Positions 2,668-26,109 of a stretch of DNA of 48,526 nucleotides are shown piece after piece. Numbering within the stretch: position 1 is the stretch's first letter; the number at the start of each line of letters is the position of its first letter. A model generated the notes under the pieces. The model was given only the letters and a program-made list of their open reading frames with translations. It was not told where the DNA came from and made no database searches. The position numbers and the translations under genes are program-made. The DNA comes from Fusobacteriaceae bacterium (GTDB taxonomy: Bacteria; Fusobacteriota; Fusobacteriia; Fusobacteriales; Fusobacteriaceae), in the NCBI GenBank assembly GCA_031289425.1, contig JAITPM010000062.1, positions 1 through 48,526 of the forward strand. Direction: 5' to 3'.

Positions 2668-3138
2668 ATGAAAAAAACTAATGCTATACGTGAATTGGAC
2701 AAGGAAAGAATTCCTTACAAAATTATTGAATACGAAGTTGATGAAAATGACGTAAGTGCTATAGCGGTATCAATAAGGACGGGACAAGATATTACAAATA
2801 TATTTAAAACATTGGTGCTATTGGATGAAAAAAAAGAAATGGTCATTGCCTGTATTCCTGGAGCGGACAATATAGATTTAAAAAAATTAGCAAAATTAGT
2901 TAATACAAAAAAAGTTGAAATGATTCCAATGAAAGATTTATTTGCTATGACAGGCTATGTCAGAGGTGGTTGTTCTCCTATAGGAATAAAAAGAAAACAT
3001 CGAACATATATGCATAAGAGTGCACTTTCTAGAGATAAAATTTTATTGAGTGGCGGACTCAAAGGAATACAAGTAGAAATAAATCCTAAAGATTTAATAA
3101 ATTATTTAAATATAATTATTGGTGATATTGTGGTATAA
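2668..3138 (+). CDS. ybaK: YbaK/EbsC family Cys-tRNA(Pro) deacylase
   Basis: This family hydrolyses cysteine that prolyl-tRNA synthetase has wrongly attached to tRNA(Pro), a trans-editing activity. The 156 residues fit the single-domain family. Visible family features are the IFKTLVL strand, the conserved lysine-containing segments (DIKKLAK-like: IDLKKLAKLV), MTGYVRGGCSPIG and the late LLSGGLKG turn. It starts at ATG 2668 with a near-consensus promoter. The next gene is a D-cysteine desulfhydrase, so two cysteine-handling proteins are adjacent. Family assignment is firm; the substrate (Cys against other mischarged amino acids) is inferred from family. Confidence 0.92.
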   Translation: MKKTNAIRELDKERIPYKIIEYEVDENDVSAIAVSIRTGQDITNIFKTLVLLDEKKEMVIACIPGADNIDLKKLAKLVNTKKVEMIPMKDLFAMTGYVRGGCSPIGIKRKHRTYMHKSALSRDKILLSGGLKGIQVEINPKDLINYLNIIIGDIVV

Positions 3139-3139
3139 T
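3131..3139 (+). promoter_or_regulatory. Possible extended -10 promoter for the desulfhydrase gene
   Basis: TGGTATAAT spans the ybaK stop codon and matches an extended -10 (TGnTATAAT). No good -35 is seen. It could start a shorter transcript of the desulfhydrase and symporter genes. Confidence 0.35.
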
Positions 3140-3219
3140 GCATAGAGATATTACATATCATTAAAATAGTTGCTGATATAATTATTTGCATAAATATTTT
3201 ATTTTTGAGGAGGTATACA

Positions 3220-4200
3220 ATGAAGGAAAAATTAAATATTGCTAATTTTCCTACTAAAATAGAAAGACTTGAAAATTTTTCTAAAGAAGTCGGGAAAAAT
3301 GTTTTTCTAAAGAGAGATGACCAAACCGGTAGTGAATTTTCTGGAAATAAAATCAGGAAATTGGAATACTCTATAAAAGAGGCAATTGACCAAGATTGCG
3401 ATACATTAATAACATGTGGAGGAATACAATCAAACCATGCCAGGTCAACAGCTGCTGCAGGGGTAAAAATGGGACTAAAATCTGTATTAGTTTTGCGTTC
3501 AGATGAAACACCGATACTAGAAGGGAATTATTTTATAGATAAATTAATTGGTGCAGATGTAAGAATCATATCAAGCAGCGATTATAGAGACCATAGAAAA
3601 GAAATAATGGAAAATATTCAAAAAGAGCTCGAGAAAGAGGGAAGGAAGGCCTACATTGTCCCTGAAGGGGCATCCAATGGAATAGGGGTGCTGGGGTATT
3701 ATACAGGTTTTGATGAAATATTAAAACAAGAAAAGAGCTTGGGAATAAATTTTGATACTATAGTTGTGGCTGTTGGATCTGGTGGAACGTATGCAGGACT
3801 TTATCTGGGGAATAAAATAAATAATTCTAAAAAAGATATTGTAGGGGTTAATGTGTGTGATGATGCAGATTTTTTCAAAAACAAATCTGTTGAAATTATA
3901 AATGAATGCCTTCCGTACATTGATAATCCGAAAGTAGAGATAACAACAAAAGATATGCATATTATTGATGGTTATGTGGGGATTGGATATGCAAAGAGCA
4001 GGCCTGAGGAACTGGATTTTATACATAAATTTGCTGTTGCAAACGGGGTAATATTGGATCCGGTATATACAGGAAAAGCTATGTACGGTATTTATAATGA
4101 GATAAAGAAAGGTAATTTGAAGGATTCCAAAAATATTTTATTTATTCATACTGGAGGAATATTTGGTCTATTCCCTAAAAGTGGGGAGTTTCAATTTTAA
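3220..4200 (+). CDS. dcyD: D-cysteine desulfhydrase family PLP enzyme
   Basis: A 326-residue fold-type II PLP enzyme of the D-cysteine desulfhydrase / ACC deaminase family, which would convert D-cysteine to pyruvate, ammonia and sulfide. The PLP lysine is in SGNKIRKLEY (K44). The cofactor ring loop is GGIQSNHAR (about 68-75) and the phosphate loop is VAVGSGGTYAGL. The true start is ATG 3220: the TTG at 3205 would place the ribosome site AGGAGG inside the gene. It lies 82 bases after ybaK and 33 before a symporter gene that may feed it. ACC deaminase activity cannot be excluded by eye, but the wording of the motifs is closer to DcyD. Confidence 0.85.
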   Translation: MKEKLNIANFPTKIERLENFSKEVGKNVFLKRDDQTGSEFSGNKIRKLEYSIKEAIDQDCDTLITCGGIQSNHARSTAAAGVKMGLKSVLVLRSDETPILEGNYFIDKLIGADVRIISSSDYRDHRKEIMENIQKELEKEGRKAYIVPEGASNGIGVLGYYTGFDEILKQEKSLGINFDTIVVAVGSGGTYAGLYLGNKINNSKKDIVGVNVCDDADFFKNKSVEIINECLPYIDNPKVEITTKDMHIIDGYVGIGYAKSRPEELDFIHKFAVANGVILDPVYTGKAMYGIYNEIKKGNLKDSKNILFIHTGGIFGLFPKSGEFQF

Positions 4201-12256: not shown

Positions 12257-12967
12257 TTATGCAATATCGTTTATAACTTTTATAACACGACCGACTACTT
12301 TAAAATTTTCGCCAGGGCCAATATAGATAGGGTTATAATTTGGATTATCACTAATTAATGCGACATAATTAGTAGTAACTTTTAATCTTTTTACGAATGC
12401 ATCATCATTCAAGACAAATGCACCTATTTCGTCATTATTTATTTCTTGACATTGTCTGCAAAGAATCAGGGAAGAATTTTTGATGGTTGGTTCCATGGAA
12501 TCTCCATTTACTCTGACAGCAAATAAATTTTCTATGTTTTTCATGCCGGGAATTGATATATATTCTGTTGGTTCTTCTTCTGCCAAGGCTCCCAATCCGG
12601 CACTTATCCTAGGGAAAACAGGAATAAGGTGTTCAAGATGTCCAGTTTCTGAAAATTTTGAAAGATTTTTTTCTTTTAGAGCATTTTCAAGTACTTTTAT
12701 TTTCTTATTAAGCATGTCTATTTTCTTTAGTACGATATTTGGGGTTCTTTCTACAGCTGCTAAATATTTGAATTCCTCAGCTGATATTGTATCTAGCTTA
12801 AGTGTAATAACCATTTTATCTAAAACTTCTTCACTAGGTGGATTTTTTACTTCACCTCTTTCGATATTATTGTAATACGGTTGAGTTATTCCAATTTCTT
12901 TGGCAAATTTATTTTGCGTGTAACCTAATTGTTCTCTTTTATTTTTTAAAAAAGTTAGAAAATTCAT
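12257..12967 (-). CDS. XRE-type repressor with S24 (LexA/CI-like) self-cleavage domain
   Basis: A 236-residue transcription repressor. Residues 5-60 are an HTH_3 domain (LGYTQNKFAKEIGITQPYYNNIERG). Residues 80-105 are a likely coiled-coil linker, and residues 118-236 are a peptidase S24 domain. The Ser/Lys dyad is visible: S157 in GDSMEPT and K193 in FVKRLK. An Ala-Gly pair at 123-124 lies 34 residues before S157, matching the LexA cleavage geometry. RecA-stimulated self-cleavage after DNA damage is therefore plausible. The ATG at 12967 has GGAGGTGA just upstream, and its promoter is at 12991-13019. No phage genes surround it. Confidence 0.9.
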   Translation of the reverse strand: MNFLTFLKNKREQLGYTQNKFAKEIGITQPYYNNIERGEVKNPPSEEVLDKMVITLKLDTISAEEFKYLAAVERTPNIVLKKIDMLNKKIKVLENALKEKNLSKFSETGHLEHLIPVFPRISAGLGALAEEEPTEYISIPGMKNIENLFAVRVNGDSMEPTIKNSSLILCRQCQEINNDEIGAFVLNDDAFVKRLKVTTNYVALISDNPNYNPIYIGPGENFKVVGRVIKVINDIA

Positions 12968-13019: not shown

Positions 13020-13056
13020 GGTTTTTTTATTTTAATTTTTATCTGATAGTGCTAAT

Positions 13057-13092
13057 AAAAAAAGCATTTATAAACAAATGTTATAAATGCTT
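13057..13092 (-). terminator. Minus-strand terminator without an obvious gene
   Basis: AAGCATTTATAA (13062-13073) pairs perfectly with TTATAAATGCTT (13081-13092) around a 7-base loop. On the minus strand it is followed by seven T. No minus-strand gene ends here, so a small RNA from 13093-13345 is possible. Confidence 0.55.
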
Positions 13093-13222
13093 AAAAATAT
13101 ATATGGTAATAAAATTATTTTATTTGTTTTTATATTTTAGATATAAAATTTATATGGAGGTTCCTAATTGCATAATGTTTTGTAATCATAAAAATATAAT
13201 TATGCTAATAATAAATTATATC

Positions 13223-13308
13223 TTGACATATCAATCTACAGAGTATAGAATTTAAGAAGATTATTTCTGCGAACAACTATTGAAAGAATTTGTTTTTGGT
13301 GTTATAAT
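13223..13308 (+). promoter_or_regulatory. Two tandem promoters of the small ORF / DUF2335 unit
   Basis: P1: TTGACA (13223-13228), 17 bases, TAGAAT (13246-13251). P2: TTGAAA (13280-13285), 17 bases, TATAAT (13303-13308) with a TG extension. P2 starts about 30 bases before the ATG at 13347. Confidence 0.7.
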
Positions 13309-13346
13309 ATAATTAGACAAAAAATTTGAAAAAGGGGAGGGGTACA

Positions 13347-13526
13347 ATGGAAAAATTGAAGAAGATAGTTATTGGTATGGGTGGATTGTGTGCGTTTGGG
13401 AACATGTTTATAAATGGATTGCCAGATAATAGAGTAGATACAATAGAAAGTTCTTGGAAAAAAGTAGGAGAGTATCTACAGGGGGCTATAGACAGTTATG
13501 AGCAAGCTCAAAAAACAAAAGGATAG
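13347..13526 (+). CDS. Small protein of unknown function (59 aa)
   Basis: A 59-residue protein with an N-terminal hydrophobic stretch (about residues 5-24, glycine rich) and a charged amphipathic C-terminal half (SSWKKVGEYLQGAIDSYEQAQ). I do not recognise it. The start ATG 13347 is preceded by a very strong GGGGAGGGG site; the TTG at 13326 would lie before it and is not needed. It ends in a TAG at 13524-13526. The downstream DUF2335 frame is the same frame and stays open from that stop onward, so the two could be one broken or readthrough gene or two coupled genes. Confidence 0.65.
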   Translation: MEKLKKIVIGMGGLCAFGNMFINGLPDNRVDTIESSWKKVGEYLQGAIDSYEQAQKTKG

Positions 13527-13556
13527 AGAAAGTCCGAAAATAAAGAAAACTTAATC

Positions 13557-13916
13557 ATGACTTCTGTGGAAAGACAAGAGAGCTTTAGTGGGCCATTACC
13601 TCATCCGGGTATACTAAAAATGTATGAAGATATAATTCCGGGATCGGCAGATCGGCTCATGTCTATGGCAGAAAATAATCAGCGTTTACAAGCTGATGTT
13701 ATTAATAGAGAGCAACGCCATAATAACCGCTATTATTTTATTGGGTTATGTTTTGCTTTTATCTTAGCTCTCATTGGAATATGTGGAAGCATCGTTCTTT
13801 TTTATAATGGTAAAACAAAAGAGGGAACAGCCGTACTTGGAGGGACTTTATCTACTATAATAGGATCTTTCATATATGGAAATAAAAGAAACAATAAAAA
13901 AGAAAACAAACAATAA
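13557..13916 (+). CDS. DUF2335 family membrane protein
   Basis: A 119-residue protein matching DUF2335: ESFSGPLPHPGILKMYEDIIPGSADRLMSMAE (given here as family blocks SGPLPHP at 11-17 and IPGSADRLMSMAE at 27-39), an HR-containing helix, and two membrane segments at about 59-84 and 91-108. Both the N terminus and the C terminus should face the cytosol. The family's function is unknown. No ribosome site precedes the ATG at 13557, and DUF2335 proteins often have a longer N terminus. The frame is open back to the TAG that ends the 59-residue ORF. A perfect 10-bp terminator follows. Confidence 0.75.
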   Translation: MTSVERQESFSGPLPHPGILKMYEDIIPGSADRLMSMAENNQRLQADVINREQRHNNRYYFIGLCFAFILALIGICGSIVLFYNGKTKEGTAVLGGTLSTIIGSFIYGNKRNNKKENKQ

Positions 13917-13942
13917 AGCCTCTAAGTAAATAGAGGCTTTTT
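13915..13942. terminator. Bidirectional terminator between DUF2335 and traX-like genes
   Basis: AAAGCCTCTA (13915-13924) pairs with TAGAGGCTTT (13931-13940) around a 6-base loop, with T on the plus side and A (T on minus) on the other. It serves both convergent genes. Confidence 0.9.
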
Positions 13943-13952
13943 ATAAATTATT

Positions 13953-25485: not shown

Positions 25486-26109
25486 TCAAAATTTATGCAA
25501 TACTGAAATAATTTTCCCTATAATTTTAAGATTTATTGATTGATTTTTTTCAAAAATTATTGGGTTATAATTCGGATTTTCGGATGTGAGAATAATTTTA
25601 TCTTTTTCATAAAATATTCTTTTTAAAGTAATCTCATTTTCTATAATAAGTAATGCAATATCCCCATTATTTAATGAATCTTGTTTTTTGATAAATACGA
25701 TATCACCTTTTTCTATTCTGGCACCAATCATGCTATTATCTTTAGCTTTAAAAGCATATTCAGCCTTATTATCGTTATTTTCGTTATTGAGATAGTCAGC
25801 ATTTTCTTCTCCTATTATAAACTCATTATTATTTAGATTATCAAGCAATAATATATCAGAAGGGTCAAATTTTTCAATATCTACTTTTTTAAGACTTTTT
25901 TCTTCCAGTTCCCATCCAAAAAGAAATTGAGGAGTTACATTACAAATTCTAGCAATTTCTACGATATATTCATATTTTACATTTTTAATATATCCGCTTT
26001 CGATTCTCTGCATTGTAGCTTCTGTTATTCCTATATTATCGGCCATATATGCTAATGTATAACCCCGTTTTAATCTAATATATTTTATATTTTCGTGTAA
26101 CAATGCCAT
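25486..26109 (-). CDS. XRE/S24 repressor of a divergent switch
   Basis: A 207-residue repressor. Residues 6-62 are an HTH_3 domain (RGYTLAYMADNIGITEATMQRIESG). Residues 115-207 are a peptidase S24-like domain with the catalytic serine in KDNSMIGARIEKGD (S126) and lysine in ITLKRIF (K163), 37 residues apart as in LexA. Unlike the repressor at 12257-12967, no Ala-Gly or Cys-Gly pair lies at the expected distance before S126, so self-cleavage is doubtful. The gene is divergent from a small Cro-like gene and its promoter carries a palindromic operator (26158-26174). The likely function is a CI-like switch, orphaned from any phage. Confidence 0.87.
   Translation of the reverse strand: MALLHENIKYIRLKRGYTLAYMADNIGITEATMQRIESGYIKNVKYEYIVEIARICNVTPQFLFGWELEEKSLKKVDIEKFDPSDILLLDNLNNNEFIIGEENADYLNNENNDNKAEYAFKAKDNSMIGARIEKGDIVFIKKQDSLNNGDIALLIIENEITLKRIFYEKDKIILTSENPNYNPIIFEKNQSINLKIIGKIISVLHKF

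What the first reader, a model, noticed from the sequence alone, without database searches (positions are those of the whole stretch)
13347..13916. Small ORF and DUF2335 gene share one frame, separated by a single TAG
The 59-residue ORF ends in TAG at 13524, and the same frame then stays open through the DUF2335 coding region. The DUF2335 ATG has no ribosome site, whereas the small ORF has a very strong one. It may be a nonsense mutation, a readthrough gene or two coupled proteins. The unit may also be a defence or stress module, as its partner repressor is a damage sensor.
Basis: partly seen in the sequence, partly recalled or inferred. Interest (0 to 1): 0.6.

Follow-up and report, generated by a model that had tools for sequence, protein, structure and literature searches.

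The report
Phage-type gene pair with frameshifted DUF2335
The two small genes are a real, widespread pair found in phages and bacterial chromosomes, but they share one reading frame here only because the second gene has lost its normal frame near its start, so this is not one gene cut by a stop codon.

Summary
ORF A (13347-13526) ends at TAG 13524, and the same frame stays open through the DUF2335 gene (13557-13916). Two unrelated ORFs would share an open frame like this about 13% of the time, so it is not remarkable alone.

Relatives settle it. All 11 other DUF2335 loci found in Fusobacteriota have an ORF A homologue immediately upstream. So do 18 phage and plasmid loci from four other phyla, although the match is weak in a few. 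No relative has a fusion or a shared frame. DUF2335 is +1 to ORF A in 27 of 29 loci, usually starting inside ORF A. The window still has that start: ATG 13498, with AGGGGG 12 nt upstream, encoding MSKLKKQ (a relative has MGKLKKQ). Its frame stops at TAA 13552, 2 nt before ATG 13557. A net frame change in 13527-13551 therefore put the DUF2335 core into ORF A's frame. It is either a mutation or an assembly error.

The pair is a ~0.9 kb cassette with its own promoters and terminator. It sits between TraX-like and S24-repressor genes that are adjacent in both sister species. The repressor is family-conserved, not a partner. Two coupled proteins is supported; nonsense mutation and readthrough are not. 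Function is unknown; a prophage-type membrane 'moron' is the best guess.

The parts
13035..13945 (+). inserted cassette (approximate limits), ~0.9 kb, between the TraX-like gene and the S24 repressor promoter
   Evidence: TraX-S24 gap is about 78 nt in G001 (L036), about 97 nt in G002 (L037) and 985 nt in the window; the sequence upstream of the S24 start is conserved up to the TTGCAA box
13223..13251 (+). sigma-70-like promoter TTGACA-17-TAGAAT (11/12)
13280..13308 (+). sigma-70-like promoter TTGAAA-17-TATAAT (11/12, TG-extended)
   Evidence: two sites of 11/12 in this stretch, 0 of 2000 shuffles have two
13334..13342 (+). strong Shine-Dalgarno GGGGAGGGG of ORF A
   Evidence: sequence
13347..13526 (+). 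ORF A: 59-aa partner protein; short hydrophobic N-terminal helix plus conserved W..VG motif helix
   Evidence: homologue in every DUF2335 locus examined; profile A2 hits 15 genomes
13480..13485 (+). AGGGGG, Shine-Dalgarno-like sequence for ATG 13498, 12 nt upstream
   Evidence: same place and spacing as AAAGGAG in L021
13498..13554 (+). original DUF2335 start (ATG 13498) and its 18-codon remnant MSKLKKQKDRESPKIKKT, +1 to ORF A, ends at TAA
   Evidence: homologous start in 11/11 Fusobacteriota relatives (overlapping ORF A in nine, 1 nt after its stop in two); MGKLKKQ in L017
13527..13551 (+). interval that holds the net frame change of the DUF2335 gene
   Evidence: must lie after TAG 13526 and before TAA 13552, by frame
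13557..13916 (+). DUF2335 core ORF: GPLPHP motif, helix, two-TM hairpin
   Evidence: PF10097 40.8 bits, phrog_3996 E 2.6e-30; AF2 pLDDT 71; hydrophobicity peak at residues 64-82
13915..13940 (+). intrinsic terminator hairpin followed by T run
   Evidence: -13.4 kcal/mol, z -5.2
13062..13092 (-). hairpin with T run on the minus strand
   Evidence: 12-nt perfect arms; z -3.8

Best explanation
ORF A and DUF2335 are two proteins of one compact, mobile, phage-type operon inserted as a ~0.9 kb cassette between two host genes. Normally the ribosome starts DUF2335 inside (or just after) ORF A, in the +1 frame. In this genome the 5' end of DUF2335 carries a net frame change in 13527-13551, so its original start (ATG 13498) now reads only 18 codons before TAA 13552, and the DUF2335 core happens to fall in ORF A's frame. 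The core can still be made, most simply by termination at TAA 13552 and re-initiation at ATG 13557 two bases on, giving a protein that lacks only the poorly conserved N-terminal tail. Shown by sequence: the pair, its frames, the empty site, the promoter-like sites and the terminator. Inferred: re-initiation, and the role, which is most likely a prophage-type membrane function (ORF A a short membrane-touching partner, DUF2335 a two-TM effector) that protects the lysogen, for example by exclusion of other phages. The confidence given is for the anatomy; for the role it is about 0.4.
For: Pair: 11/11 other Fusobacteriota DUF2335 loci and all 18 phage and plasmid loci examined have an upstream ORF A-like gene, DUF2335 at +1 in 27/29 and never in the same frame. 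Start: ATG 13498 is homologous, with AGGGGG 12 nt upstream and MSKLKKQ matching MGKLKKQ in L017. Codon usage of 13528-13551 is better in the +1 frame (2.65 bits, against -0.42 for 13527-13556 in the DUF frame; short stretch). Cassette: gap of about 78 and 97 nt in sister species against 985 nt here; promoters; terminator. Decay of the same second gene elsewhere: G082 cut after GPLPHPDV, G019 lost, G045 broken off. Phage setting: phrog_3996 is classed as moron; the pair lies between lysin and integrase, or at lysis or tail genes, in several phages.
Against: No second strain of this species was available, so a real mutation and an assembly error cannot be told apart. No expression or protein data. 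The role is inferred from setting only: no PADLOC family, no solved relative, and no paper found on its function.
Confidence: 0.85

Rival explanations
1. Assembly or sequencing error: the real genome has an intact DUF2335 gene starting at ATG 13498 in the +1 frame, and the shared frame does not exist. (Compatible with the module; it concerns only whether the frame change is real.)
For: One net frame change in an A-rich stretch of a draft genome in 123 contigs; every Fusobacteriota relative with an intact gene is +1.
Against: The runs there are only 3-4 A long, and the long genes around it in the window look intact; true decay of this gene is seen in three other genomes.
Confidence: 0.35
2. Nonsense mutation (TAG 13524) in one fused ORF A-DUF2335 gene.
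For: The two ORFs share a frame around one TAG.
Against: No fusion in 29 relatives, all with another frame; an ORF A stop near this position is the rule in relatives.
Confidence: 0.02
3. Stop-codon readthrough or programmed -1 frameshifting makes a longer DUF2335 here.
For: A -1 shift from the ATG 13498 frame before TAA 13552 would give the full-length protein.
Against: No canonical X XXY YYZ site in the usable interval by inspection; no stimulatory RNA structure (z -0.8); no Rfam match; relatives need no recoding.
Confidence: 0.04
4. A damage-responsive defence unit made of the S24 repressor plus the pair.
For: The repressor is divergent and adjacent, with S24 and HTH domains.
Against: The repressor is found in 44 of 61 genomes searched, lies next to TraX in both sister species that lack the pair, and has no counterpart beside the pair elsewhere in the phylum. 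The cassette went in between TraX and the repressor's own promoter.
Confidence: 0.03
5. The pair is a lysis accessory (holin, antiholin or regulator) rather than a lysogeny-time protective moron.
For: Beside endolysin or holin genes in L016, L023 (by inspection), IME-SA4, D6890 and Javan436; two-TM hairpin.
Against: Own strong promoter and terminator; also in tail regions and near anti-repressors, and as a stand-alone chromosomal cassette with no lysis genes.
Confidence: 0.2

Closest known systems
DUF2335 (PF10097) / phrog_3996 membrane proteins
   Same: GPLPHP motif, P..DR...MAE helix and two-TM C-terminus
   Different: Lacks the usual 25-35 residue N-terminal tail because of the frame change; core frame coincides with ORF A
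Phage morons / lysogenic-conversion genes (general kind)
   Same: Own promoter and terminator, inserted between unrelated genes, patchy distribution, found in temperate phages at several genome positions
   Different: Here it is alone in the chromosome between core genes with no other phage gene nearby
SLATT / two-TM conflict effectors
   Same: Two-TM hairpin; very weak profile similarity (SLATT_1 E 0.15, SLATT_fungal E 0.19)
   Different: Below every cut-off; no nucleotide-second-messenger genes recognised nearby; likeness only
phrog_26284 and phrog_27385 (unknown function)
   Same: Weak matches to the ORF A family (best E 7.7e-4 and 1.4e-5)
   Different: The window's own ORF A matches only phrog_26284, at E 0.011

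Membership tests
DUF2335 (PF10097) | Profile score over the curated cut-off | tested here: met
   40.8 bits against 25
DUF2335 (PF10097) | Two TM helices after the motif | tested here: met
   AF2 helices 30-83 and 88-118, hydrophobicity peak 2.78 at 64-82; prediction only
ORF A + DUF2335 overlapping pair (defined here) | Upstream homologue with W..VG motif | tested here: met
   W, V and G invariant in 12 Fusobacteriota sequences
ORF A + DUF2335 overlapping pair (defined here) | DUF2335 read in another frame than ORF A from a start inside or just after it | tested here: not met
   Start ATG 13498 kept, but the core is in frame 0: a frame-broken member
Phage moron | Independent transcription unit inserted between unrelated genes | tested here: met
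   Empty site in both sister species, two promoter-like sites, terminator
Phage moron | Expressed from the prophage and changes the lysogen | not testable with these tools
   No expression data
Programmed frameshift or readthrough gene | Slippery site or readthrough context with stimulatory structure, conserved in relatives | tested here: not met
   z -0.8; relatives have a different, unbroken arrangement
Known anti-phage defence system | Match to a PADLOC-DB model | tested here: not met
   None for ORF A or DUF2335 of the window
S24-repressor-controlled module | Repressor conserved beside the unit | tested here: not met

The most novel reading that the evidence does not exclude
ORF A plus DUF2335 is an undescribed two-protein membrane system that prophages of at least five phyla give their hosts, with ORF A as an obligatory partner that controls a DUF2335 pore, and the window shows that the N-terminal tail of DUF2335 can be shed by a stop-restart split without loss of function.
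Probability: 0.2. Interest if true: 0.65.

Novelty: new member of a known kind. Interest (0 to 1): 0.35.

Why it matters
DUF2335 has no known function that I could find, and its small upstream partner has no Pfam, NCBIfam or PADLOC family. Showing that the two genes travel together across five phyla, as a self-contained cassette with an overlapping start, gives a concrete unit to test. The window is also a useful caution: a shared frame round a stop codon can come from an indel in the second gene rather than from a stop put into a fused gene.

Tried and rejected
Fused gene with a nonsense codon: rejected by frames in 29 relatives. Programmed frameshift or readthrough: no slippery heptamer in 13527-13551 by inspection, no structure, no Rfam hit. 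S24 partner: rejected by the empty sites and by its absence elsewhere. Known defence system: no PADLOC hit. Fold search of the DUF2335 model: no match with E below 4 (the model has pTM 0.34, so it says little). Profile search of PDB sequences: nothing significant. Close relatives in IMG/VR and GTDB r220 contigs with the window protein: none; the alignment was too diverse for that tool. Literature: two papers name DUF2335, neither on its function. One of them, PMC6267618, lists it as a phospholipase, which from memory looks like a slip for DUF2235. Target-site duplication at the cassette ends: AT-rich repeats only, nothing convincing. A first script failed on loci whose match lies on the minus strand; its frames were wrong and are replaced.

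Full report
What is there. ORF A runs from ATG 13347 to TAG 13524-13526 and encodes 59 residues. The same frame is open through the DUF2335 gene, whose first in-frame ATG is 13557 and whose stop is at 13914-13916. ORF A has GGGGAGGGG 4 nt before its ATG. ATG 13557 has no such site. By chance alone, two neighbouring same-strand ORFs here would share an open frame over 10 codons about 13% of the time, so the pattern needs relatives to mean anything.

Relatives in the phylum. PF10097 was found in this genome and in 11 of 99 others in the search of relatives. I took the flanks of all 11. Every one has an ORF A homologue directly upstream of DUF2335. An alignment of the twelve small proteins has an invariant W, V and G (W..VG motif). 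A profile of the small protein finds 15 genomes: these 12 plus G019, G045 and G082. In G019 no DUF2335 sequence remains, in G045 it is broken off after a few codons, and in G082 it is cut just after the GPLPHPDV motif.

Relatives outside the phylum. Eighteen phage and plasmid loci from Bacillota, Pseudomonadota, Spirochaetota and Campylobacterota hosts all have an upstream ORF of the same type, some of them unannotated. In several the motif is weak (for example L025, L026, L062, L066), and in four (L063, L066, L067, L069) the ORF is longer; for these, position and overlap carry the argument.

Frames. In all 11 Fusobacteriota loci and 16 of the 18 others DUF2335 is +1 to ORF A, in two it is +2, and in none is it 0. 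In most loci the DUF2335 start lies inside ORF A, often as TATG made from a Tyr codon and the next G. (Overlapping genes on one strand cannot be in frame 0, so the absence of frame 0 is partly forced; the point is that the relatives do overlap and are not fused.) The window still has this start, ATG 13498, at the codon for the same Tyr (SYEQ here, QYEK in L023, QYGQ in L017). AGGGGG stands 12 nt upstream, as AAAGGAG does in L021. The first residues, MSKLKKQ, match MGKLKKQ in L017. That frame ends at TAA 13552-13554. The DUF2335 core therefore left the +1 frame somewhere after TAG 13526 and before TAA 13552, and landed in ORF A's frame. Codon usage over those few codons leans to the +1 frame, but the stretch is too short to weigh much. 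Only the fact and the interval are stated here.

How it could still work. TAA 13552 and ATG 13557 are 2 nt apart (TAATCATG), a typical stop-restart spacing (established knowledge). The core keeps the GPLPHP motif and both TM helices; only the variable N-terminal tail is missing. Re-initiation is inferred, not shown. There is no sign of recoding: no canonical slippery heptamer in the interval (by inspection), no stimulatory structure (z -0.8) and no Rfam match.

The cassette and its site. In both sister species (G001 in L036, G002 in L037) a flavodoxin-like gene, a TraX-like gene and the S24 repressor are adjacent and co-directional, with about 78 and 97 nt between TraX and the repressor. (The flavodoxin and TraX names rest on my reading of the sequences; NCBIfam gave no hit for the TraX-like protein.) In the window that gap is 985 nt and holds the pair on the other strand. 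Neither sister species has DUF2335. The inserted stretch has two 11/12 sigma-70-like promoters (0 of 2000 mononucleotide shuffles had two) and a strong terminator (z -5.2). So this is a self-contained transcription unit that arrived as a block. The repressor belongs to the resident chromosome: it is 79-81% identical in the sister species and was found in 44 of 61 genomes searched. It has S24 and HTH domains and a LexA-like score below the LexA cut-off. It is not a partner of the pair.

Likely role. phrog_3996 is classed with morons and host takeover. In phages the pair lies after the lysin-like gene and before the integrase (IME-SA4), after holin and lysin (D6890, Javan436), or among tail genes or beside an anti-repressor (TCUAN1, RAH1, ZX5). 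In Fusobacteriota it is both in phage-like and in plain chromosomal settings. AlphaFold2 gives a two-TM hairpin for DUF2335 (pLDDT 71, pTM 0.34) and two helices for ORF A (pLDDT 72), the first of them moderately hydrophobic. A membrane-acting prophage moron that protects the lysogen is my best guess (about 0.4), with a lysis accessory as the main rival (about 0.2). No database or paper found here gives a tested function.

Verdict. The frame coincidence is a by-product of a frame change in the second gene, real or from the assembly. The more lasting result is the conserved ORF A-DUF2335 pair itself.

Noticed in passing
L028 (BK070157.1) 2914-3285: The DUF2335 gene is annotated with a start too far downstream (3115); the open frame begins at 2902 and overlaps the small ORF by +1.
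   Followed up: partly
L030 (PV539235.1) 2706-2903: Unannotated 65-aa ORF A homologue upstream of the DUF2335 gene of Klebsiella phage vB_Kpn_RAH1.
   Followed up: partly
window 12257-12967: XRE-S24 repressor with LexA-like C-terminus, found in 44 of 61 genomes searched and adjacent to the TraX-like gene in both sister species; below the curated LexA cut-off (59 against 111 bits).
   Followed up: partly
window 25486-26109: A second XRE-S24 type repressor gene on the minus strand in the same window.
   Followed up: no
L059 about 1660-1760 (G082): DUF2335 remnant cut by a stop just after the GPLPHPDV motif behind an intact ORF A homologue.
   Followed up: yes
PMC6267618, table of MIX effectors: Lists DUF2335 as phospholipase; probably a slip for DUF2235, from memory.
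   Followed up: no
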